DNA of 64,000 nucleotides from positions 124,001 to 188,000 of the forward strand of contig NZ_AUGL01000007.1 in NCBI RefSeq assembly GCF_000422645.1, written 5' to 3'. The position numbers and the translations under genes were made by a program. This document shows positions 51,065 to 62,431 of this stretch, one piece after another. The notes below the pieces were generated by a model. It did no database searches and was not told the origin of the DNA. It was given only the letters and a program-made list of their open reading frames with translations. How positions within the stretch are numbered: the stretch's first letter is position 1; each line of letters opens with the position of its first letter. This stretch comes from Ferrimonas futtsuensis DSM 18154. GTDB lineage: Bacteria > Pseudomonadota > Gammaproteobacteria > Enterobacterales > Shewanellaceae.

Positions 51065-52360
51065 ATGAGGGTCTATGTTTACAAGGATTTAGTAGGCTTA
51101 GCCAGAGTTGAGATCGTGAACACCGATTGCGTCCCAGTAAGCTTTTGCCTCTCCCATTTCATGCTAAGTAGCTTCGCAGCACGCCCATTCAATACGAGAT
51201 ATACGTACGCCAAGGTAATGCTCTTTATCTTTCGATACTTCAAGCTCAATGGAATCTCATTGACTAAACGCGCTCAGGAAGGTCAGTTTTTGACCACGGA
51301 AGAATACAAGGCCTTCAAGCGACACGCAGGCTATAGGGTATCCGAAGACAAAGGAACACTGAAAGGGAGCGTTGCACAACTGCGGTGCGTGCAAAGGCAG
51401 GTTTCCGAAAAAAAACTGGATGACATGATTCATGCCACCCACACATCCAGTGCTCAAGTGGCCGCCAACACTCGAAAATTGCGGTTACGTTTACTTCACG
51501 ACTACCTCAATTATCTATTTACAACGTTTCACGCAACTGCCGCTCCTACCGCACAAGTAAGCATTACATTAGGTCAGCTCTGCAAAGCAATTCGACTCGA
51601 CATCAAGAGTATTAGGAAAGATAACTGCGATGTCCGGGATCCTTATGCTCAGGCAATTCCTGATTCTACTTTTTTTAAGCTGTTGGATATCACCCGTGTG
51701 CACTCTGCTCAAAACCCTTGGAAAGGAGCGAGGTTGCGAAACCAACTCATTGTTGCCCTACTCAGCGAAACAGGTGTCAGGCGCGGTGCCTTGGCCAAGA
51801 TAAAGATCAGCAATTTCAAAAGGAGAGGTGATCAGCACTACCTTTTAGTAACCCGAACTCCAGGCGACCCTACCGACTCGCGCAAACTACCTGCATCCCA
51901 AAAGACCAGAGCACATACAGCCCCCATTAGTAACTCTCTAATGAAGCTTATACGCCACTATATAAATACCGAACGGTCACAATCACAGGCCTCCTTGCAG
52001 CACGACTTTCTCTTAGTGTCGCAAAAAGGAAAAACTGCAGGAATGCCTATCGCCCTTTCTACAATAAACGGATTGTTCAATACTCTGTCTCAAAGGTTGG
52101 AGTTAAGAATCCATCCCCATCTGCTACGTCACAAGTGGAATGAAATTTTTAGCATGAAGGCCAAAGCTCAAGGGTACTCCATGGAACAGATTGAAGACCT
52201 AAGAAAATACGCCATGGGATGGTCGATTAACAGCTCAATGGGCTCTTTATACAACGAGTTTCATAATGCCATATCAGTCCTGCAAATTGCCCAAGCGCGC
52301 CAGAAGGCATTTTTGACAGACGGAGAGTGTGAGAATGTCAATAAAGCCCATTCAAAGTGA
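51065..52360 (+). CDS. Tyrosine recombinase 1 of the island (GmtY/TnpA-like)
   Basis: This 431-residue protein has an N-terminal SAM-like DNA-binding part and a C-terminal catalytic domain with the full tyrosine-recombinase set: R239 (SETGVRRGALAKIK), K280, H352 and R355 (HPHLLRHKW), W386 in the second-His position (GWSINSS) and nucleophile Y396 (SLYNEF). It should cut and rejoin DNA at an attachment site. The next gene overlaps its end by 26 bases. It could be the GmtY or Tn554 TnpA equivalent; I could not compare sequences. Confidence 0.88.
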   Translation: MRVYVYKDLVGLARVEIVNTDCVPVSFCLSHFMLSSFAARPFNTRYTYAKVMLFIFRYFKLNGISLTKRAQEGQFLTTEEYKAFKRHAGYRVSEDKGTLKGSVAQLRCVQRQVSEKKLDDMIHATHTSSAQVAANTRKLRLRLLHDYLNYLFTTFHATAAPTAQVSITLGQLCKAIRLDIKSIRKDNCDVRDPYAQAIPDSTFFKLLDITRVHSAQNPWKGARLRNQLIVALLSETGVRRGALAKIKISNFKRRGDQHYLLVTRTPGDPTDSRKLPASQKTRAHTAPISNSLMKLIRHYINTERSQSQASLQHDFLLVSQKGKTAGMPIALSTINGLFNTLSQRLELRIHPHLLRHKWNEIFSMKAKAQGYSMEQIEDLRKYAMGWSINSSMGSLYNEFHNAISVLQIAQARQKAFLTDGECENVNKAHSK

Positions 52361-53993
52361 CTCCACCTCTACAACTAAGCGACAGCTACTCCTTGCTAGG
52401 AACGACGCTTATGCATTTGATCCTCAGAGCAACGAATGGCTACTCGATCTTAATGATCATATCCATCTTCACTGGATTGCAGAGCGACAGTGGAGTTACG
52501 AAGGAGAGCAAACCGCTCGCAAGCTTTTGGCCTACATAGCCCAGCACTTTGCTCCATCCACAGTCAATAACTACAGTTACGCACTTAAATTTCTCACAAG
52601 CCCACTAGATTTGACTGCTCTGAAAATACAGTGGCCGAATCTACGTGACTCGCGGAAAATCTTGTTGACAAGTCTTTTGAGCCACTGGCAAGACGCCGAA
52701 CTTCCTGAGCTTGCAGCATTAGCCAAGTTTGCCAAAAACCACTGCCCTCCAGTTCCACCCAAAAAGGTGTTAGACCCGGAGAAAGGCACCTACAGTGAGT
52801 ATGAATACGCCTCGATCCGAAAAGAGCTGTACGCTGCGACACAAAAACAGCTTCGAAGGATTCAGGACCCTGAAATCAACCTGCTTTCACCAGAGGCATT
52901 AAGTGACTTTGGCACCCTTGTGGCACTGCAACTAATGATTGGCATCACCAGACGCCCGTGCCAATTAGTGCAAGTAAAGTGGTCAGACATTTTACCGATT
53001 GGAGCCAGCTTCTCTGATCACCGCTTTGATGCTCCCACCCCAGAGCAAGAACCTCAGTTTAGTGATGTAGATGGACTCCATGTGCGCACTTTCAGAGGAA
53101 AAGATGGTCAATTTCGTGCTGACCTGGAAAGACGTTCGCACCCTCTTTCTCCAGAGTTGTCCACACTCATCAGAATTTACCGTCAAGCCTATTTATGCAC
53201 TCTATTAAGCTGCTTGAAAAAACAGCGGATAACCCTGCCTGAAACAGAACAGCAAACACTCTTCCAAAGATGCCCAGTGTTCGCAGCACCCAGCTTGTTC
53301 AAAACCGAGTTTGGCTCCAAAGCCATCCTATTCCAAGCATTGGGATCAAACTCCGAAGCATATCATTGCACCTACTCTAAATTGAATAATGCCATGAGGG
53401 TTTACCAAAAACGTCTCAACCTTACCAGTGATCGCATTGCCGATGACAAGCTACTCCTAGGCAACAATCGTCTTCGCCACCATGTACTCACCGAGGGGGC
53501 TCGCCAAGGTTTACCTTTGGCCTATTTAGCAGCCATTACCGGAGTAACGATTCACACGGTTCGAGCATATGTCGACTTATCGTTTGAAGCCCGGCTCGAC
53601 ATCGACGGCCGGATGGCCCTGTCTCAGGTTCTACGCAAATTTGGCAAGCAGTCTCTCGCAGAAGTTCAGCAAGAAAACTATTTCATGGTGAAGGATGAGT
53701 TTGACCAAGAACTGGGGTGGCAGCACAGTCAAATCGACTGCGCGCTGTGCCCGCACAAGCAAAATAATTGTGCTCGGCTGGCTTGCTATCCTTGTAGCAA
53801 CTTTCGCCCTCACCCGAAAGGGGATCACCATCGTTCACTTGTTCTGGCTAAGCGAAAGATGGAACTCAATCAAAGGAATGGAGCTTCTAAAAGCACCCTA
53901 AAACACCTACGCCTCATAGTGCTGTACATCGAAGCCACCATCTGTGTATGCCATCAATACAACTTGGCAGAGAAAGGGGTGGGAAATGACTGA
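52335..53993 (+). CDS. Tyrosine recombinase-like protein 2 with C-terminal zinc finger
   Basis: This 552-residue protein has R206 (GITRRPCQLVQVKW), a NNRLRHHVLTEGARQ box (N378 replaces the usual histidine, R381 kept) and Y412 (VRAYVDL). A cysteine cluster C469, C472, C479, C484, C487 (CALCPHKQNNCARLACYPC) follows, as in some TnpB/GmtZ-like integrases. ATG 52335 has GGAG nine bases upstream. It may be catalytically changed and act with protein 1. It overlaps protein 3 by eight bases. Confidence 0.82.
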   Translation: MSIKPIQSDSTSTTKRQLLLARNDAYAFDPQSNEWLLDLNDHIHLHWIAERQWSYEGEQTARKLLAYIAQHFAPSTVNNYSYALKFLTSPLDLTALKIQWPNLRDSRKILLTSLLSHWQDAELPELAALAKFAKNHCPPVPPKKVLDPEKGTYSEYEYASIRKELYAATQKQLRRIQDPEINLLSPEALSDFGTLVALQLMIGITRRPCQLVQVKWSDILPIGASFSDHRFDAPTPEQEPQFSDVDGLHVRTFRGKDGQFRADLERRSHPLSPELSTLIRIYRQAYLCTLLSCLKKQRITLPETEQQTLFQRCPVFAAPSLFKTEFGSKAILFQALGSNSEAYHCTYSKLNNAMRVYQKRLNLTSDRIADDKLLLGNNRLRHHVLTEGARQGLPLAYLAAITGVTIHTVRAYVDLSFEARLDIDGRMALSQVLRKFGKQSLAEVQQENYFMVKDEFDQELGWQHSQIDCALCPHKQNNCARLACYPCSNFRPHPKGDHHRSLVLAKRKMELNQRNGASKSTLKHLRLIVLYIEATICVCHQYNLAEKGVGND

Positions 53994-56322
53994 GCTAAAC
54001 CAATTTATCCGGGAGCAATCAGCATTCATACATAAGTTGCAAGAGGCCAGTCTGACGGGCTGGCTTACACCGCTAGGAAAGCCAGCCAGTTGGAACGACA
54101 TCGGATGGGAGTATCACTATCCTAATGGAACAAAACTAACCTGTTATTTCTGCGATCATACCGTTTTGGTGCCCAGGCGGACTTTATGTCATCAGCCGGA
54201 TAAACTTCTTCCTGAAGCTGAGCGTCACCTTTTGATGGCCTATGCCATTGAGCTAAGTGCCACATGCGTAAGCCACTCGAATAAGCAAAGAAAGCACACT
54301 GCAGCAAGGCATTGGCTGGGAATCCTAGGTGACAATCCGGCCCGGGTAGGTCATGGACAACTGCTCCAAGCCTATGACCTTGTGCTTAAGAGCTGTAAAC
54401 CCAAAACCCGACCTCTCAAGTTCTTTATCCAGTGGCTGAAGGATAATGGTTTGGTCCCGCATACAATACCAATGCCTCCTCAAGACTACGGAGAGGACAA
54501 CCTATTAGGCGACGAAGCCATAGATCGGCTCAAGCGACAGCGTCCTAGAGATCAAAGCTTGCTAGCGCTTGGCGCTATCACTCACCACACGATTCCACCA
54601 GATCGTGATCGCTGGGCATTGCACCCACTCTCCCTACAACGAGACGCCCTTACTTGCGCCATCGCCACTCTGGCAATGAGCTCTCCCAATCGTGTAGCAG
54701 CAGAGCAAACTGTACTAGCTAAGCAATCTTTGAGATGTGAAACCCGAAGAAACAAATCAAATAAGCTACAGAAGGTCTATTCGTTGGTTTGGAGTGGTTC
54801 AAAAGGTATCGGAGATTTTCAGAATCACATACTGGCAGAGATGGCAGAGGGCGTAGCCCGCTGCCTTAATTACTTTGCTAAAGCCTGTGAGCCCGGTCGA
54901 ATACTAGCTCGCTTTTACTCCTCACCTTCACGGCCCCTACGCACACTCTTAGGAAGCTATACGCCTTCAGGTGATTTGCTCAGCAAACTGAACTTAAATC
55001 CAGAACAGCCCATCAACATGTTTCACTTAGGGTATCTACTTGGCTTTTATAGTGAATCTGAGGAAGTAATCACAATCAATAAAAGTGCTCAAAACCCTAG
55101 CCCAGCTCCGCACGAGTTCTCGAACAAAGTCCAGCATGAGAACAAGCCCGTCTGGCAACTATCCACAAGAGACCTCATCATCAATGATAGCCACAATATA
55201 TCGACTCTACTGGGGGTAAAATTAAGTCCGAAAACACTATCATCCCTGCTGGGTATTCACTCAAACAGTATCACAGTTACCGAGCTTCAATCTCATTGGA
55301 TTGAGCATATCTATCATCATCTTCTTCCAGGTTTCCCTATAGGCCGCAACCGCTCAAAACACAATAGGATTCGTTATGACCAAGCCCTTTTTTGCCTACT
55401 CGGAACTCAGTTTTATCTGAACGGAAAAACAGCTGGAAACTACCCTACCTGCAGAAGTCCATACAGTTTAGTTCCGATTTCAGCAATCGGTAACCATGTC
55501 TCCTCATCGTTGAGCTCAATGCAACGAGGAAAAAACATCTTCGAACGTCATGGCTTTGATCGAAGCTTTGGACTCACTCCGCACCAATTTCGCCATTGGT
55601 TGACTGATGAAGCAGACCGACGCGGTGTAGTCCAAACCATAAACAACCTGTGGGGTGGGCGCAAAAATCCAGATCAGTTGCTGCATTATGTGCACACGAC
55701 TCATGGTGAGCACGTTGATAAGATAAGTGAAATTTTACTAGTCGATGAAACTGTTCCTGAAAAAGACCACATCAATATCAGGCTCGCAACCATCGACAAG
55801 TATAAAACTGCCACCATGACTCAAGCGAGTATTACGTCCACGGGAATCTGCACTCAAGATCTTGTTACTTCCCCTTGTGACTATCTCAATGATTTCGAGA
55901 CTCAATGCACCCTTTGCTCCAAGTGTGGCACCATCAAAGGTGATAAGTTGGCGACAGACTTATTAAGGAAAGATGAAGAAGTGCAAAAACGCAGACTAAA
56001 AGAAGTAAGTTGCCACCCTAATTTTCCGGCTAGTAACAGTATGCAGGAATGGTATCGCCGGCACTTCGTGAATACTTCTATCCTCGCCGAATTAAACAGC
56101 ACGATTGCCGACCCTTTGATCACTTCAGGCTCACTGATCCGTATTTTGCCAAACAAGAAAGAGATCCGTATCTCAGACTTGGTAAAACGTACGATTGAAC
56201 GTCGAACACTGTCACTACCATGTTCTAAAGAAGCACTTGCGGCAGCATTAGATTTACACCGACTTTCGCCATCTGAAGATAATCCGATGGCTGGCATTCA
56301 AGCTTTACTTAATAAGGAGTGA
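53986..56322 (+). CDS. Large tyrosine recombinase-like protein 3
   Basis: This 778-residue protein has an N-terminal part with a CYFC...C cluster, a long middle region and a C-terminal catalytic-like domain: R236 (MSSPNRVAAEQTVL), H533 and R536 (LTPHQFRHWLTDEADRRG) and Y568 (LLHYVHTTHGEH). A further cysteine group CTLCSKCGTIKGD lies near residue 642. ATG 53986 follows GGGGTGGG and overlaps the previous stop by eight bases. Together the three proteins form a coupled recombination unit. Confidence 0.78.
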   Translation: MTELNQFIREQSAFIHKLQEASLTGWLTPLGKPASWNDIGWEYHYPNGTKLTCYFCDHTVLVPRRTLCHQPDKLLPEAERHLLMAYAIELSATCVSHSNKQRKHTAARHWLGILGDNPARVGHGQLLQAYDLVLKSCKPKTRPLKFFIQWLKDNGLVPHTIPMPPQDYGEDNLLGDEAIDRLKRQRPRDQSLLALGAITHHTIPPDRDRWALHPLSLQRDALTCAIATLAMSSPNRVAAEQTVLAKQSLRCETRRNKSNKLQKVYSLVWSGSKGIGDFQNHILAEMAEGVARCLNYFAKACEPGRILARFYSSPSRPLRTLLGSYTPSGDLLSKLNLNPEQPINMFHLGYLLGFYSESEEVITINKSAQNPSPAPHEFSNKVQHENKPVWQLSTRDLIINDSHNISTLLGVKLSPKTLSSLLGIHSNSITVTELQSHWIEHIYHHLLPGFPIGRNRSKHNRIRYDQALFCLLGTQFYLNGKTAGNYPTCRSPYSLVPISAIGNHVSSSLSSMQRGKNIFERHGFDRSFGLTPHQFRHWLTDEADRRGVVQTINNLWGGRKNPDQLLHYVHTTHGEHVDKISEILLVDETVPEKDHINIRLATIDKYKTATMTQASITSTGICTQDLVTSPCDYLNDFETQCTLCSKCGTIKGDKLATDLLRKDEEVQKRRLKEVSCHPNFPASNSMQEWYRRHFVNTSILAELNSTIADPLITSGSLIRILPNKKEIRISDLVKRTIERRTLSLPCSKEALAAALDLHRLSPSEDNPMAGIQALLNKE

Positions 56323-56324
56323 TC

Positions 56325-56714
56325 GTGGTCGCACCCGCATTGAATACCAAGCAAGTTCGGGAAGTGGAAAGAATACTCATCAGTTGGAGTACTAAACTAA
56401 CCTGGCAGCTATTAGTTGAACGCATCGAAATCGAGCTTGAGATTGCAGTAACGCGGCAAACGCTCAGTAAGTACAGAGCCATTCAGTCGGCCTATAAGCT
56501 CAAGAAGCAGGCTCTAAGAGGCCAGCCCAATCATGATTTTATCGAGTTTACTCAGAAGAATGTGGACACATACCAATCCCTCAGAGCAGCAGAAGCGAAA
56601 GTAGCCGTATTGCAAAGACAGATCGACGCGCAGCTGGTATTCATCCAGAAAATCTTTGAGGAAGCAGACAGCTACCCGCAGCTCAGAGCTCTTCTCATTA
56701 AACTAGCCGACTAA
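56325..56714 (+). CDS. Small HTH/coiled-coil recombination accessory protein (GmtX/TnpC-like)
   Basis: This 129-residue protein has an N-terminal helical part (WSTKLTWQLLVERIEIELEI, TRQTLSKYRAIQSAYKLKK) resembling a winged helix and a C-terminal coiled coil (AAEAKVAVLQRQIDAQLVFIQ). GTG 56325 has AAGGAG five bases upstream and follows the previous stop by two bases. Tn554 has a similarly small TnpC after its two recombinases, and GMT elements have a third partner GmtX; the role here is probably in recombination directionality or DNA binding. Confidence 0.65.
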   Translation: MVAPALNTKQVREVERILISWSTKLTWQLLVERIEIELEIAVTRQTLSKYRAIQSAYKLKKQALRGQPNHDFIEFTQKNVDTYQSLRAAEAKVAVLQRQIDAQLVFIQKIFEEADSYPQLRALLIKLAD

Positions 56715-57338: not shown

Positions 57339-57866
57339 TTGGCTAAACGTCAATCAATGAGACTTGATCCTGGCTTGGTTACACTGCTTCTAGAGCAACA
57401 ATCCGAAGCCTTCACGATGCAATCCCTAGTGAATCTTTATGCCGAAAAATTCGGCCTAGGTGATAACGCCTCGATATCCGAATTGCGAAAGTGGCTCTAT
57501 CGCCGCGTCGTGTACTTAGTCAAACGAGAGTTCTTGGTCAAACTCGCTCAAGATGGTGAAGCAGCTGAGTATCAAGTAACCTCTTTATTTAAAAAGGCAT
57601 TTCCCCAGGACCAATTGGGTTACGTTGCACACGATCTAGCCAGTTCTGCTCAATTGGATGAATTAAAGCACCGCTTAAGCCAATACCATGTTGATATGTT
57701 GGCTTGCGCTGGCGAATGCAAGGAGTACCAACGTTTAGTTACTGAGTTCCCACAACTGCGCCCAGAAATCGAACAGTTACACCAGACCGCCAAAGACCGA
57801 AGCTCAGAGTTATTGGGGCAGATTCGAGCCATCAACAATCTCCTCCAACAGCCCTCACCAAACTAA
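57339..57866 (+). CDS. Winged-helix/coiled-coil protein upstream of a helicase
   Basis: This 175-residue protein has an N-terminal wHTH-like region (residues about 15-85, MQSLVNLYAEKFGLGDNASISELRKWLYRRVVYLVKREFL in parts) and a C-terminal coiled coil (about 105-170). The start is TTG 57339 with a weak AGGT upstream. Only three bases separate it from the helicase gene, so the two are coupled. It may be the DNA- or phage-recognition subunit of the pair. Family not recognised. Confidence 0.65.
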   Translation: MAKRQSMRLDPGLVTLLLEQQSEAFTMQSLVNLYAEKFGLGDNASISELRKWLYRRVVYLVKREFLVKLAQDGEAAEYQVTSLFKKAFPQDQLGYVAHDLASSAQLDELKHRLSQYHVDMLACAGECKEYQRLVTEFPQLRPEIEQLHQTAKDRSSELLGQIRAINNLLQQPSPN

Positions 57867-57869
57867 CAT

Positions 57870-59243
57870 ATGAAACTCAGATCATGGCAGAGTGAGTGCG
57901 TAGAACTTGCTCTTACACGCTTTCGTGTGCATCCCCACTTTATGTGTCTTGCTACTCCTGGTGCAGGAAAAAGTGTGATGTCAGCAGAATTAGCTGCAAA
58001 CCTCTACAGAGCAGGAATGATCGATTTCATTCTTTGTTTTGCTCCCTCAAGAGAGGTCTCAGACGGGCTCGCCCGGACATTCGAGCATCGCCTTGGAAGG
58101 CGATTTGACGGGCACATAGGTGCAATCGGCGGAGCCTACACATACCAATCAATGGCTTACCTAGGATCGAAGTTCTGGGAGATGCTTGATCGATACCGAG
58201 TATTTGTCGTCTTCGATGAAATCCATCACTGTGCAGGAGCCAACCGCAGTAATACAAACACTTGGGGCAAAGAGATACTCGAACACATTCAAGATCGAGC
58301 AGCTTACACTTTGGCACTAACCGGTACGCCATGGCGCTCAGATAAACGGCCTATCGTGCTTTCTCGCTACGGTTCGGACGGCATAAAGTGTGATTATACA
58401 TACGGCTTGCGAGATGCTGTTTTCGACAATGTCTGTCGTAAACCAAACATAGTACTTATCGACAACGACAGGCTGGCTATTGAAGAGCAAGGAGAGCGCC
58501 AAGAGTTTGCAGGTATCTCCGCTTTTTTAACTGACTCGAAAAAGGCTTACAGATCAATATTGAACAACGATGCAGCACTACACCACTGCTTAGAGCTAGG
58601 TGTTAAGAAGCTAAATCACCTCAGGAAAAGCACTCCTTCTGCTGCAGGTCTAGTCGTGGCTTCCTCCGTTTCACACGCTAGAAAGATTGAACAGATCCTG
58701 AGAGGACAACTCTCACAATCCGTGAATCTTGTAACCTACAGGGAAGAGAACCCACAGCGAATCATCAATCGATTCAGACTAGGTGATCAGCCTTGGATAG
58801 TGAGTGTGGGCATGATCAGCGAAGGCACAGACATACCCCGCATCCAAGTATGTTGTCATTTGAGCTCCGTCACCACGGAACTGTACTTTCGCCAAGTACT
58901 TGGGAGGGGCATTCGAAAAACACAAGAATGCGACGGAGAGACTTGGCTGTACACATTCGCAGAACCAAAAATCGTTGAATATGCCAATCGCATTGCCGAA
59001 GATCTTCCCGAGTATGAGGTTCTCTTTCAAGGTGCCGAGGCTAATTCGACCAAAGACGCCCCTAGACAACTGTGTACTTTAATGCCAGTGACCAGAAACA
59101 CTTCAAGCACTGAGGAGGCTAACCCTCTTGCAAGTGGAGAGTGGATAAGCGAAATGTTGTTGCCTAATGCTGTCGAAAAGCCACACTCGATGGAATTTCT
59201 TGGTACCTTCACTCAAAAGCTCTGTGGGCTCATCCTTCCTTGA
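57870..59243 (+). CDS. DEIH-box superfamily 2 helicase
   Basis: This 457-residue protein has both RecA-like domains of an SF2 helicase: Q-like LRSWQSECVELAL, Walker A TPGAGKS (29-35), DEIH at 116-119 (VFVVFDEIHHC), motif III-like TGTPW (151-155), motif V VGMISEGTDIPR (about 313-324) and motif VI QVLGRGIR (342-349). No nuclease or methylase domain is fused. It follows the wHTH/coiled-coil gene by three bases. Such stand-alone helicases with a partner are frequent in phage defence units; that role is inferred. Confidence 0.85.
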   Translation: MKLRSWQSECVELALTRFRVHPHFMCLATPGAGKSVMSAELAANLYRAGMIDFILCFAPSREVSDGLARTFEHRLGRRFDGHIGAIGGAYTYQSMAYLGSKFWEMLDRYRVFVVFDEIHHCAGANRSNTNTWGKEILEHIQDRAAYTLALTGTPWRSDKRPIVLSRYGSDGIKCDYTYGLRDAVFDNVCRKPNIVLIDNDRLAIEEQGERQEFAGISAFLTDSKKAYRSILNNDAALHHCLELGVKKLNHLRKSTPSAAGLVVASSVSHARKIEQILRGQLSQSVNLVTYREENPQRIINRFRLGDQPWIVSVGMISEGTDIPRIQVCCHLSSVTTELYFRQVLGRGIRKTQECDGETWLYTFAEPKIVEYANRIAEDLPEYEVLFQGAEANSTKDAPRQLCTLMPVTRNTSSTEEANPLASGEWISEMLLPNAVEKPHSMEFLGTFTQKLCGLILP

Positions 59244-59298: not shown

Positions 59299-59362
59299 TG
59301 ACCGACAAGCCGGGTTCTGTCGTGAACAATCATTCCTCTAGGCCCAGGCTCTAGCGCCTAAT
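59299..59362 (-). ncRNA. rnpB: 3'-end fragment of RNase P RNA (rnpB), probable attachment-site relic
   Basis: Read on the minus strand, 59349-59299 gives GCCTAGAGGAATGA, CACGACAGAACCCGGCTT and GTCGGTCA in order, the conserved 3' end of bacterial type A RNase P RNA (E. coli reads GCCTAGATGAATGA, CACGACAGAACCCGGCTT, ATCGGTCA). A hairpin AGGC-GCTAGA-GCCT (about 59359-59346) may be the preceding helix. The remaining roughly 300 nucleotides of the RNA are missing. Elements that integrate at the 3' end of an RNA gene carry such a copy to rebuild the gene, so this looks like a displaced attachment site. It is not a working rnpB. Confidence 0.8.
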
Positions 59363-59400: not shown

Positions 59401-60417
59401 TTAAGTTTCAGCCCAGTTTGGAGCAAGACCCAAGTCATTGAAAACACGCTGCAACAGAACAAAATCAAATGGCCAGTGATTCTTAATTGCAATCGTGAAA
59501 CGATAGGACAAAAAATAGACAAGCAAGATGAAGGGCGATTTGAATTCAATCCCTGCTTCAGCCCCAATGTGACCCTTAATTCTTTCAGCAATGAACAGAT
59601 TCTCAGGCTCATCGAGAAACGTCTGAAATGCCTCGACAGATGTTCTTGCTAGCAGTTCTCTAAGTGCATCAATAAACAGTTCGCTGTTTTTGTTTTCGTA
59701 CAGCATTTCACAGTCAGACAGCCTTACTTCAGATTCTTCGTTAACTGCTTCGAGCCAACGCTTTACGTCTATCGACGCCTCTTCCAAGGCCCTTTTAGCG
59801 TTGCAAAGTAAGTCATCCGTTGTTTCCATCAAAGCCATGCTTTTTGCAAAGCAACGATGAACTTCTGGAGATGCCTTTATGTTGCCTTTGTAGATAGTGT
59901 CATGAGCGAGCTCTGCATAAGCATGCTGAAGCAAAGTCCTTAGTTGAACTTCGCAAGGCGTTCCCGCCTTAACATCAACCCCTTGATACTGAAAGTCATT
60001 TGCCGCCTTCACTATGTAATGAACGGATTGATAATCAAACATCCTAGGGTCATCATCTTTCCACTCATCAAACTCTTTATCTTTCGAGTAAGACCAAGCA
60101 TCACTGGATTCAACGATGTTAGACAGCAGGTCAAGCTGCTCAGTAAGCAGAACAACAAACCTGATACCAGCCTTGTCCGTAATCTCCCTATATGGGTCCC
60201 TATACCTTCCCCGCTTCCGTATAAAGGCTTTGGCTACTAGCGAGTCTACTGTCTTTACTCGTCCCGTTGGAGGTATCTTGACGCACTCATAGTATGCGGC
60301 TTGAGTTTTAAGCCGCCCCTTGATTGACCCGTTGATTGTTTCCTTTACAAAGTCAGCCCACGCTTGGTACATGGGCCTTTCTGACTCATAAAGTGCAATA
60401 AAATCAGCTTGATTCAT
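59401..60417 (-). CDS. RelA/SpoT-domain nucleotidyltransferase, island cargo
   Basis: This 338-residue protein has a RelA/SpoT synthetase-like domain at about 45-180: GRVKTVDSLVAKAF with R53, DPYREITDKAGIRF with D81, DYQSVHYIV (128-136) and PCEVQLRTLLQHAYAELAHD with E156, H165 and H172. The acids needed for pyrophosphate transfer are present, so it may make (p)ppGpp-like alarmones or pyrophosphorylate tRNA, as toxSAS/CapRel toxins do. No HD hydrolase, TGS or ACT domain is present; a 150-residue helical C-terminus follows. It starts one base after the NA37-like gene stop. Confidence 0.85.
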   Translation of the reverse strand: MNQADFIALYESERPMYQAWADFVKETINGSIKGRLKTQAAYYECVKIPPTGRVKTVDSLVAKAFIRKRGRYRDPYREITDKAGIRFVVLLTEQLDLLSNIVESSDAWSYSKDKEFDEWKDDDPRMFDYQSVHYIVKAANDFQYQGVDVKAGTPCEVQLRTLLQHAYAELAHDTIYKGNIKASPEVHRCFAKSMALMETTDDLLCNAKRALEEASIDVKRWLEAVNEESEVRLSDCEMLYENKNSELFIDALRELLARTSVEAFQTFLDEPENLFIAERIKGHIGAEAGIEFKSPFILLVYFLSYRFTIAIKNHWPFDFVLLQRVFNDLGLAPNWAET

Positions 60418-60418
60418 C

Positions 60419-61486
60419 TTACTGTTGCTCGGTGAGCTGTCCCTGAATCCGAACCGTAGTATGCTCCGCAGTTGACTCTAAGATGGTAATCATCTCTTCA
60501 AAAGATTCTGCTGGAGCAGTCAATTTAACACTAGTTGAAAAATTCATCTTCCGCGTTGCTAATCTGCGTTTGATAAGCTGAGTATCTTTCTGAATGGCAT
60601 TCTGAGGGAAGTTCTTGTTTCTCATGAAGAAGCTGTAATCATCCCTTAACTCCTCATTCATAAACTGCTCTGCAAAGCCTGCCACATGAATCGTGGTCCC
60701 TTGGTCTGTTTTGAGATAAGTATTCAACGCCTGCTGCAGGTCTACTTTCATCTCATTTGAAATGTCAACGTCACCGATAAACTCTTTGGTATACTCAAAA
60801 AAGTCTCTAGTACGCTGCTCTGCGTTCTCAGGGATTCTTAAGCCCAGAAAGCTAGAATAGAAGTAACGGGCAGCCTTCCTGTCATCCTTGGCCTTGATGT
60901 TGCTATCAAACACATACGCCTCAAAGTCACCAGTATTGCGGGGGGACTCGCCTATGCTGTCTTGAGCCAATTCAACGAAGACACCCACTTTGTACAGCTT
61001 CGCTTGAGGTGTAAGGATAAGGCTTTCGATATACTCAATCAGAACCCTGTCATCTACTTCCTTTTCTATGAATCCTGCTTGCTGCTCCGCTTTGACAATG
61101 AACAAACATCGTTTATTTGAAGCTCCCGCAGTACCTTCAATAATAACCAAGGTACCTCCAGGCCAACTGCGATTAGTGTGCGCAGCGGTATGCAGCCTTG
61201 CGATTTCTGCGGAGTTGCTGATGAATTCTTCGGCACTTACACCAAGCAATCGCGTAGCCTGATGGAAACAGCCCACCTCACCAGTTTGAGCAACATCCAT
61301 CTGTAAACTGTGAGAGTTTGAACCCAGAACCTTAGTGATGCGCTCTTCTAATTTCTGACGCCCATTGACAGCCAGCTCTGTGAGTGAAGTACTCAGAAAG
61401 GGTTCAACAGCTCCTTCTTCATCAGGCTGATAAACGTTATGAAGGATGACTCTAGAAAAGCTTAAGTTCTTGAATTCGAATGACAT
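60419..61486 (-). CDS. NA37 (NdpA/YejK)-like nucleoid-associated protein, island cargo
   Basis: This 355-residue protein has the general layout of the 37-kDa nucleoid-associated family (E. coli YejK, 335 residues): IEYIESLILTPQAKLYKVGVF, FEAYVFDSNI, then a core RYFYSSFLGLRIPENAEQRTRDFF and a C-terminal FAEQFMNEELRDDYSFFM region. ATG 61486 with GGAG upstream is chosen; the frame extends to 61597 without support. It is upstream of and tightly coupled to the RelA/SpoT gene, and may be its sensor or antitoxin. Assignment is by pattern and moderately certain. Confidence 0.6.
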   Translation of the reverse strand: MSFEFKNLSFSRVILHNVYQPDEEGAVEPFLSTSLTELAVNGRQKLEERITKVLGSNSHSLQMDVAQTGEVGCFHQATRLLGVSAEEFISNSAEIARLHTAAHTNRSWPGGTLVIIEGTAGASNKRCLFIVKAEQQAGFIEKEVDDRVLIEYIESLILTPQAKLYKVGVFVELAQDSIGESPRNTGDFEAYVFDSNIKAKDDRKAARYFYSSFLGLRIPENAEQRTRDFFEYTKEFIGDVDISNEMKVDLQQALNTYLKTDQGTTIHVAGFAEQFMNEELRDDYSFFMRNKNFPQNAIQKDTQLIKRRLATRKMNFSTSVKLTAPAESFEEMITILESTAEHTTVRIQGQLTEQQ

Positions 61487-61876: not shown

Positions 61877-62431
61877 CTAAGTATTACCTTTTTCAATGTT
61901 CCCTATCGTCGCGCGACTAACCCCATACTCTTTACTCAAATCCATCTTGGAAACGCCCTGAGAGAGCTTCTGACGCACTTCCTCCCTTTGTGATGGGGTT
62001 AGCTTGGGTTTGCGCCCTCCATAGTTCCCTGAGGCTACCTTGCCCTCCTGCGTGCGGGATACAATGAAGTTTCTCTCCATCTCAGCAAACATCCCTAGAA
62101 GTTGAATCATCGCAGTATTCATAGGTTCACTGTTGGCTGTATCAATGTTCTGGTCGATAGCTACCAGATTCACTCCTTTATCTCTCAGTGATTCAATGGT
62201 CACGAGTACCTGCGAGAGGGAACGCCCAAACCTATCCAGCTTGGTAACAACCACTGTGTCACCCTCTCTTGCGTATGCCATCAGTTCATCTAAGGCTGCC
62301 TTGTTAGTATCAGCCTTACCTGAGCGCTTTCCCTGAAACACCCTCTCACATCCATATTCACTCAACCGCTCAACCTGAATGGTTAAGTCCTGCTGAACAG
62401 AGCTGACTCTCGCGAATCCCAACAAAGCCAT
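61877..62431 (-). CDS. Serine resolvase/invertase
   Basis: This 184-residue small serine recombinase has the nucleophile S10 in the FARVSSVQQD motif, the catalytic region VVVTKLDRFGRSLSQVL, the long E helix region EMERNFIVSRTQEGKVASG and a C-terminal HTH (TPSQREEVRQKLSQGVSKMD, KEYGVSRATIGNI). It is of the Tn3 resolvase/Hin group. No transposase is adjacent. Inverted TTGACA/TGTCAA sites beside its start are possible res or regulatory sites. Confidence 0.93.
   Translation of the reverse strand: MALLGFARVSSVQQDLTIQVERLSEYGCERVFQGKRSGKADTNKAALDELMAYAREGDTVVVTKLDRFGRSLSQVLVTIESLRDKGVNLVAIDQNIDTANSEPMNTAMIQLLGMFAEMERNFIVSRTQEGKVASGNYGGRKPKLTPSQREEVRQKLSQGVSKMDLSKEYGVSRATIGNIEKGNT

What the first reader, a model, noticed from the sequence alone, without database searches (positions are those of the whole stretch)
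59401..61486. Coupled NA37-like nucleoid protein and RelA/SpoT enzyme: candidate defence system
The two genes are one base apart in a mobile island, between an rnpB relic and a resolvase. The RelA/SpoT protein keeps the synthetase acids but no hydrolase domain, like toxSAS/CapRel toxins. Its partner resembles DNA-binding NA37 proteins rather than a known antitoxin. A nucleoid-associated sensor that triggers nucleotide-pyrophosphate toxicity on phage DNA sensing would be new to me.
Basis: partly seen in the sequence, partly recalled or inferred. Interest (0 to 1): 0.75.

Follow-up and report, generated by a model that had tools for sequence, protein, structure and literature searches.

The report
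NA37 and alarmone-synthetase mobile gene pair
Two adjoining genes on a mobile DNA island, one for a nucleoid-type protein and one for an intact alarmone-synthetase-type enzyme, travel together through many bacteria and prophages, sometimes beside known anti-phage genes and sometimes with a predicted membrane-pore gene, and so look like an uncharacterised phage-defence module.

Summary
Window 60419-61486 (-) encodes a 355-aa NA37/YejK-type protein; 59401-60417 (-) encodes a 338-aa synthetase-only RelA/SpoT enzyme (REL) with its catalytic positions intact. One base separates them, on a foreign island between a 3' rnpB remnant and a resolvase.

The pair behaves as an obligate unit. REL follows NA37 in 33 of 34 genome loci; the 34th contig ends there. 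NA37 precedes REL in 59 of 60 strong viral-contig loci; the 60th starts at a contig edge. In 369 evenly drawn Gammaproteobacteria the same three genomes (the window's own included) carry both. Protein distances mirror each other (r = 0.915). The pair rides prophages, plasmids and integrated elements, sometimes beside restriction, BREX or PsyrTA genes. A SLATT/DUF4231 membrane gene joins it in three arrangements; the window copy has none.

Best reading: a mobile anti-phage module in which NA37 restrains and triggers a toxic synthetase. Toxicity, product, trigger and complex are untested. A YejK-domain system was recently validated as anti-phage in E. coli (PMC13092281); its partner gene was not visible to me, so priority may not be new. 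Novelty: new variant of a known kind.

The parts
60419..61486 (-). NA37/YejK-type protein, 355 aa, first gene of the pair; proposed restrainer and sensor
   Evidence: PF04245 6.5e-14; fold match E. coli YejK 9be2 E 9.4e-11
59401..60417 (-). REL: synthetase-only RelA/SpoT enzyme, 338 aa, second gene; proposed effector. Synthetase core about 50-180, helical C-terminal half about 184-338
   Evidence: PF04607 2.2e-15; SAS fold; catalytic residues; secondary structure
59302..59351 (-). Remnant of the 3' end of rnpB
   Evidence: 47 of 50 bases identical to the genome's own rnpB; RF00010 E 0.0047
61877..62431 (-). Serine resolvase/invertase on the island, upstream of the pair
   Evidence: PF00239 1.1e-34, PF02796 1e-6
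57339..59243 (+). Small protein plus RadD-like helicase, convergent with the pair; also beside the pair on a Klebsiella plasmid (neighbourhood, not core)
   Evidence: PF04851 1.2e-11; 47% and 28% identity to the Klebsiella neighbours (L002)
51065..56714 (+). Recombinase block of the island: a tyrosine recombinase (51065-52360), an integrase_1-like protein (52329-53993), and 792-aa and 131-aa ORFs without family matches of weight
   Evidence: PF00589 9.9e-13; NF041502 5e-22, below its cut-off

Best explanation
The pair is a mobile two-gene conflict module of bacteria, most likely anti-phage and acting by growth arrest. REL is an active pyrophosphotransferase of the small-alarmone-synthetase fold. 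The NA37 protein, encoded just before it, is its dedicated partner: it holds REL inactive and releases or activates it when infection disturbs what NA37 watches (DNA or topoisomerase state, or a phage protein). Active REL then moves pyrophosphate onto nucleotides or tRNA CCA ends and stops growth before the phage matures. In some lineages a SLATT two-helix membrane protein is added as a further effector. Shown: obligate pairing, shared descent, catalytic residues kept, purifying selection in two close comparisons, mobility, and prophage and some defence-gene company. Inferred: restraint by NA37, toxicity, product, trigger, abortive outcome.
For: Pairing both ways: 33 of 34 NA37 loci have REL next door, the 34th contig ending there; 59 of 60 strong RELs have NA37 next door, the 60th at a contig edge, while 11 weak RELs have none; the same 3 of 369 genomes carry both, own genome included. 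Mirror correlation 0.915 over 48 pairs, 0 of 2000 permutations as high. Overlapping or nearly touching genes: -4 bases in 24 of 42 pairs, range -46 to +34 by longest ORF. Catalytic residues kept, matched to FaRel2 as described in PMC11782079 (passages). dN/dS 0.06-0.20 in two close comparisons. Defence neighbours in 6 of 30 genome loci. CapRel, a SAS toxin under an antitoxin/sensor domain, is anti-phage (PMC9712102, passages). A YejK-domain system was validated in E. coli defence (PMC13092281, passages).
Against: No experiment. Background rate of defence neighbours not measured. PADLOC has no model for NA37 at E up to 1 and only a partial, candidate-family hit for REL (PDC-S33, residues 51-192). 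The CapRel/ATfaRel2 neutralising motif YXXY is absent from the window NA37 and present in only 12 of 37 relatives, at most 5 in one column. REL's best fold matches are non-toxic SAS1/SAS2, above CapRel and FaRel2. One locus, L049, has NA37 frameshifted near its start and REL intact, against simple antitoxin need, unless it is a sequence error.
Confidence: 0.55

Rival explanations
1. Nucleotide-messenger immunity: NA37 senses infection and switches on REL, which makes a soluble pyrophosphorylated nucleotide as a messenger; where SLATT is present the messenger opens that pore, much as cyclic nucleotides act in CBASS. Two-gene copies rely on the nucleotide's own effect or on an unlinked effector.
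For: SLATT/DUF4231 genes adjoin the pair in 14 of 49 tree rows, in three arrangements; with L075 added both trees need 3 changes, strongly supported branches forcing 2 (REL) and 3 (NA37). SLATT was predicted to be a nucleotide-responsive pore (stated in PMC7159879, passage) and is needed for DRT10 defence (PMC12632851, passages).
Against: 35 of 49 rows, the window's among them, have no adjacent SLATT gene; no messenger or pore activity was tested; L075 is a long branch.
Confidence: 0.2
2. Addiction module: a toxin-antitoxin pair that keeps mobile elements in place and has no phage trigger.
For: Antitoxin-first gene order with overlap; carriage on plasmids, prophages and islands; REL broken while NA37 is intact in L005 and L022.
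Against: A 355-aa partner is large for an antitoxin (general knowledge); company of restriction, BREX and PsyrTA genes; recurrent SLATT.
Confidence: 0.12
3. Physiological regulator: an accessory NA37 with a (p)ppGpp synthetase that tunes replication or supercoiling for the element, with no toxicity.
For: YejK is reported to inhibit gyrase and topoisomerase IV (PMC10053502, passages); REL folds most like housekeeping SAS1/SAS2.
Against: Very sporadic presence (3 of 369 genomes); the genome already has three other RelA_SpoT proteins and its own YejK.
Confidence: 0.07

Closest known systems
CapRel (fused toxSAS toxin-antitoxin, e.g. CapRel-SJ46)
   Same: Single synthetase domain of the same fold, G-loop tyrosine and ATP-binding residues; prophage carriage; proposed restraint and phage-triggered release
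   Different: CapRel's antitoxin/sensor is a fused pseudo-zinc-finger domain; here the partner is a separate NA37 protein of another fold. Foldseek to CapRel 1.6e-5, weaker than to SAS1/SAS2
toxSAS toxin-antitoxin pairs (FaRel2-ATfaRel2, PhRel2-PanA)
   Same: Two-gene pair with a synthetase-only enzyme and matching active-site residues
   Different: Their antitoxins share the PAD1/D27/pseudo-zinc-finger fold (PMC10440598, passages); NA37's only significant fold match is YejK. Substrate here unknown
YejK / NA37 nucleoid-associated proteins (E. coli YejK, pneumococcal StaR)
   Same: Same family over about 280 residues and same overall fold
   Different: Encoded on mobile elements in obligate pairing with REL; far below the YejK equivalog cut-off (20.2 against 341 bits); the housekeeping YejK is a separate gene
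YejK-domain defence system of DefensePredictor (PMC13092281)
   Same: NA37/YejK domain, validated as anti-phage in E. coli; may be this very system
   Different: Partner genes are not stated in the text and legends seen; cannot be compared
SLATT-coupled systems (SMODS-SLATT, DRT10-SLATT)
   Same: A nucleotide- or nucleic-acid-making enzyme joined to a SLATT two-helix membrane protein, in some relatives
   Different: Here the enzyme is of RelA/SpoT type and SLATT is optional; absent from the window copy

Membership tests
NA37 family (PF04245) | Match above the curated cut-off | tested here: met
   52.5 bits against 24.6
NA37 family (PF04245) | YejK-like fold | tested here: met
   9be2 at E 9.4e-11 over 361 columns, but TM-score only 0.38-0.40 and rmsd 11.8, so domain placement differs or is unsure
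NA37 family (PF04245) | Association with the nucleoid or DNA | not testable with these tools
   No binding data
Housekeeping YejK (NF001557) | Equivalog cut-off | tested here: not met
   20.2 bits against 341
Small alarmone synthetase (synthetase-only RelA/SpoT) | RelA_SpoT domain without hydrolase | tested here: met
   Only PF04607 among families of weight; HDxxED in 0 of 39; SAS1/SAS2 best fold matches
Small alarmone synthetase (synthetase-only RelA/SpoT) | Catalytic and ATP-binding residues | tested here: met
   R53, K55, K63, D81, R86, Y129, H133, E156, Q158, R160 in 39 of 39; S59 in 38 of 39
toxSAS | Toxicity by (pp)pApp synthesis or tRNA CCA pyrophosphorylation | not testable with these tools
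   Needs expression and biochemistry
toxSAS | Partner antitoxin of PAD1/pseudo-zinc-finger fold with YXXY | tested here: not met
   NA37 matches YejK only; no YXXY in the window protein, 12 of 37 relatives, not in a shared column
CapRel | Fused C-terminal antitoxin/sensor domain | tested here: inconclusive
   REL has a variable helical C-terminal half; Foldseek alignments to CapRel are low in TM-score (0.41-0.42) with rmsd over 15
PADLOC candidate PDC-S33 | Full-length match to the model | tested here: not met
   E 2.6e-9 but only residues 51-192 to model positions 69-204 of 349
Anti-phage defence system | Protects against phage | not testable with these tools
   Only genomic context is available

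The most novel reading that the evidence does not exclude
The pair is the core of an immune pathway that signals with a linear pyrophosphorylated nucleotide: an NA37 nucleoid protein reads the state of DNA during infection and switches on a RelA/SpoT synthetase, and the alarmone-like product either poisons the cell or gates a SLATT membrane pore, a CBASS-like logic built on alarmone chemistry, to which SLATT was joined about three times.
Probability: 0.2. Interest if true: 0.87.

Novelty: new variant of a known kind. Interest (0 to 1): 0.62.

Why it matters
It gives NA37/YejK, a family known mainly as a nucleoid and topoisomerase-linked protein, an obligate partner whose enzyme class is understood, so what NA37 proteins sense becomes testable. 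It would add another kind of partner to SAS-type effectors. Its repeated union with SLATT genes offers a direct test of whether alarmone-type nucleotides can serve as immune messengers.

Tried and rejected
Chance adjacency: rejected. Duplicated housekeeping genes: rejected, since the genome keeps its own YejK and three other RelA_SpoT proteins. SLATT as an essential third gene: rejected, 35 of 49 tree rows lack an adjacent one. A hidden membrane partner beside two-gene copies: a crude hydropathy scan showed no recurrent one, but that scan also missed the SLATT genes of L014 and L033, so it is weak; L044 has a 244-aa two-helix neighbour with no family above cut-off. NA37 in deposited phages: P0001 alone gave no tblastn match at 1e-5. 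Promoter and terminator patterns around the pair: no more than shuffles. Exact element ends: only a 10-base direct match (CACCTTTACA) among other 10-base matches, so not settled. The antitoxin reading by broken copies: mixed (L005, L022 and L053 one way, L049 the other).

Literature: two recalled papers (Burroughs 2015; Jimmy 2020) are not held. The ten paper searches that ran listed no paper that I could see to be on an NA37-RelA/SpoT pair; I saw listings with abstract starts, plus passages of the papers I cite, and for PMC13092281 also its outline and figure legends. bioRxiv as such and most subscription papers are not held, so absence from print is not shown.

Rows dropped: one search lists 42 pairs after L001, L005, L012, L015, L016, L019, L021 and L022 were set aside as duplicates, cut or broken; one search's tree has 48 loci plus the window; L004, a very long branch, was left out of the mirror test and the second trees. 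In some searches, 131 of the 141 neighbour proteins listed were scanned (ten left out: eight of the larger ones and two from L047); those calls print only the 25 commonest families, and 20 proteins were looked at singly.

Full report
Observation. The island is foreign: G+C is 0.43-0.50 in 1.5-kb blocks from about 50.5 to 70 kb in window numbering, against mostly 0.60-0.65 outside, with one outside block at 0.515. Its exact ends are not settled. The remnant matches the 3' end of the genome's own rnpB, on another contig, at 47 of 50 bases.

The proteins. NA37 is a PF04245 member but not the housekeeping YejK, which the genome carries elsewhere at 357 bits. Its AlphaFold2 model (pLDDT 82, pTM 0.63, 37 sequences) has one solved match below E 0.001, E. 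coli YejK 9be2; the low TM-score (0.38-0.40) means that the domains are placed differently or that the layout of the model is unsure. REL carries the RelA_SpoT synthetase domain and no hydrolase. Its model (pLDDT 89, pTM 0.76, 39 sequences) matches small alarmone synthetases SAS1 and SAS2 best (from 1.7e-8), then CapRel (1.6e-5), Rel enzymes and FaRel2 (4.6e-4). FaRel2 residues R64, K66, S70, K74, R95, Y128 and E145, described in passages of PMC11782079, have counterparts at R53, K55, S59, K63, R86, Y129 and E156; these are invariant in 39 aligned RELs except S59, a threonine in one. The mapping, by spacing and motif order, is mine. The part of REL after about residue 211 is the most variable stretch in either protein.

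Conservation of the pair. Searched by NA37, the genome collection gave 34 loci, and 33 have REL directly downstream; in the other, L019, the contig ends. Of the 33, L022 has REL split over two ORFs and L021 has only a short REL ORF just before its contig ends. In the plasmid collection all 5 records with NA37 also match REL beside it, among them two chromosomal-size Neisseria gonorrhoeae records where REL lies in two pieces; the 6 other REL records are partial matches covering 45-62%. Searched by REL alone, viral contigs gave 73 loci: 60 score 250 bits or more, 59 of them with NA37 directly upstream and the 60th, L077, beginning at base 1 of its locus; of the other 13, L134 has both genes in pieces, L135 is cut at an edge, and 11 are weak matches (34-48 bits) to other synthetases, none with NA37. 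Some of these viral contigs are near-copies, so the 59 are not independent. In three of the 59 (L088, L092, L093) the NA37 match is short and weak (92-108 bits). In an even draw of 369 Gammaproteobacteria, 3 genomes have NA37 and the same 3 have REL over 400 bits next to it; the next RELs score 99 bits or less. In 398 Pseudomonadota 3 have NA37, both new ones with REL adjacent. The window's own genome is one of the 3 each time. Protein distances of the two families correlate at 0.915 over 48 pairs; no permutation of 2000 exceeded 0.27. Two close comparisons give dN/dS of 0.06-0.20 in both genes; the E. coli M37H and Carnimonas copies are 98.3-98.7% identical in DNA although their hosts belong to different families. 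The pair is a selected, horizontally moving unit.

Company. The pair lies on plasmid records of Klebsiella, Ochrobactrum and Streptomyces, beside an integrase in an element with trb genes next to guaA in E. coli M37H, in tRNA-linked islands of E. coli, and on viral contigs. At DNA level 9 of 5426 E. coli genomes gave any match to one of three query pairs; I opened 6 of the 9: five have NA37 and REL annotated, and 1504D004 has REL in two ORFs, SLATT and no NA37. Viral loci L012-L014 (two of them near-copies) show a replication-type gene before and portal-type genes after the pair, the layout of a P2-like prophage; L008 and L005 look Mu-like. These phage labels are mine, by eye from ORF order, with only indirect support. 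Known defence genes stand within about 4 kb in 6 of 30 genome loci: a type III methyltransferase 60 bases upstream (L025), a type I methyltransferase upstream and a type I restriction subunit directly downstream (L026), BREX PglZ and BrxL (L027), PsyrTA (L033), and, on weaker or partial matches, a nicking-endonuclease type (L042) and MzaA (L048). No background rate was measured and not every neighbour was looked at singly. A viral copy, L009, has an Mrr-type nuclease gene 16 bases upstream. The helicase and small protein beside the window pair recur beside the pair on the Klebsiella plasmid.

The SLATT link. A gene of about 150 aa of the DUF4231/SLATT kind adjoins the pair in 14 of 49 tree rows and in 6 of the 60 strong viral loci. 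Of 9 such proteins scanned, DUF4231 passes its curated cut-off in 5 (two of them the same protein) and is weaker in 4; SLATT families themselves stay below their cut-offs; RefSeq calls the L051 and L075 proteins SLATT. Thirteen rows have it upstream on the same strand, L074 has it downstream and convergent, and E. coli L075 and L076 have it downstream on the same strand. With L075 added, both quick trees need three changes, of which strongly supported branches force two (REL) and three (NA37); without it two changes sufficed and one origin was not ruled out. L075 is a long branch, so its place is unsure. The window copy belongs to a five-row two-gene clade.

Mechanism. The nearest tested analogy is CapRel, in which an antitoxin domain holds off a SAS domain and also recognises a phage protein (PMC9712102, passages); a CapRel relative senses a phage protein together with host FtsZ (PMC13423816, passages). 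I propose the same logic with NA37 as a separate restraining and sensing partner. What NA37 senses is open: E. coli YejK is reported to inhibit gyrase and topoisomerase IV and StaR to activate topoisomerase I (PMC10053502, passages), so DNA state is plausible, and a phage protein equally so. The product may be a nucleotide or modified tRNA. The SLATT link favours a soluble nucleotide in at least some lineages. Broken copies give a mixed picture: REL broken with NA37 intact in L005 and L022, REL split with NA37 absent in L053, but NA37 frameshifted near its start with REL intact in L049.

Standing against the literature. PMC13092281 (passages, outline, figure legends) lists a YejK nucleoid-associated domain among those newly validated in E. 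coli defence; its partner is not in the text I saw, and the present pair may already be validated there. I put that at roughly even odds, as a judgement. The searches that ran showed me no paper on the NA37-RelA/SpoT pair or its SLATT extension, in a library that lacks much of the field. I file it as a new variant of a known kind: a synthetase-type conflict module with a new kind of partner.

Noticed in passing
window 57339-59243: A 175-aa protein and a RadD-like helicase, convergent with the pair, have relatives (28% and 47% identity) in the same relation to the pair on a Klebsiella plasmid (L002); they may be a second cargo cassette.
   Followed up: partly
window 51065-56714: A tyrosine recombinase, an integrase_1-like protein, a 792-aa ORF and a 131-aa ORF in a row; the layout recalls Tn554-type integration modules (recalled, not tested).
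   Followed up: partly
window 59302-59351: A 50-base remnant of the 3' end of rnpB, away from the intact gene, perhaps a trace of an element that once used rnpB as its site.
   Followed up: partly
window 63297 to about 68177 (past the window's end): A 1626-aa ORF with a signal-like start, followed by a 298-aa ORF, at the right part of the island; perhaps an Rhs-type protein by eye.
   Followed up: no
L053 (E. coli 1504D004): REL in two ORFs with SLATT but no NA37 beside a P2-type integrase, where related E. coli strains (L075, L076) have NA37, REL and SLATT; a decayed copy.
   Followed up: partly
L088, L092, L093: Viral loci whose NA37 match is short and weak (92-108 bits) before an ordinary REL; NA37 may be truncated or very divergent there.
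   Followed up: no
L044 10105-10839: A 244-aa protein with two predicted membrane segments directly downstream of REL, sister to the SLATT-bearing L074; perhaps another membrane effector.
   Followed up: partly
L026 4999-7050: The pair sits inside a type I restriction-modification locus, with a methyltransferase gene upstream and the restriction subunit gene directly after REL.
   Followed up: partly
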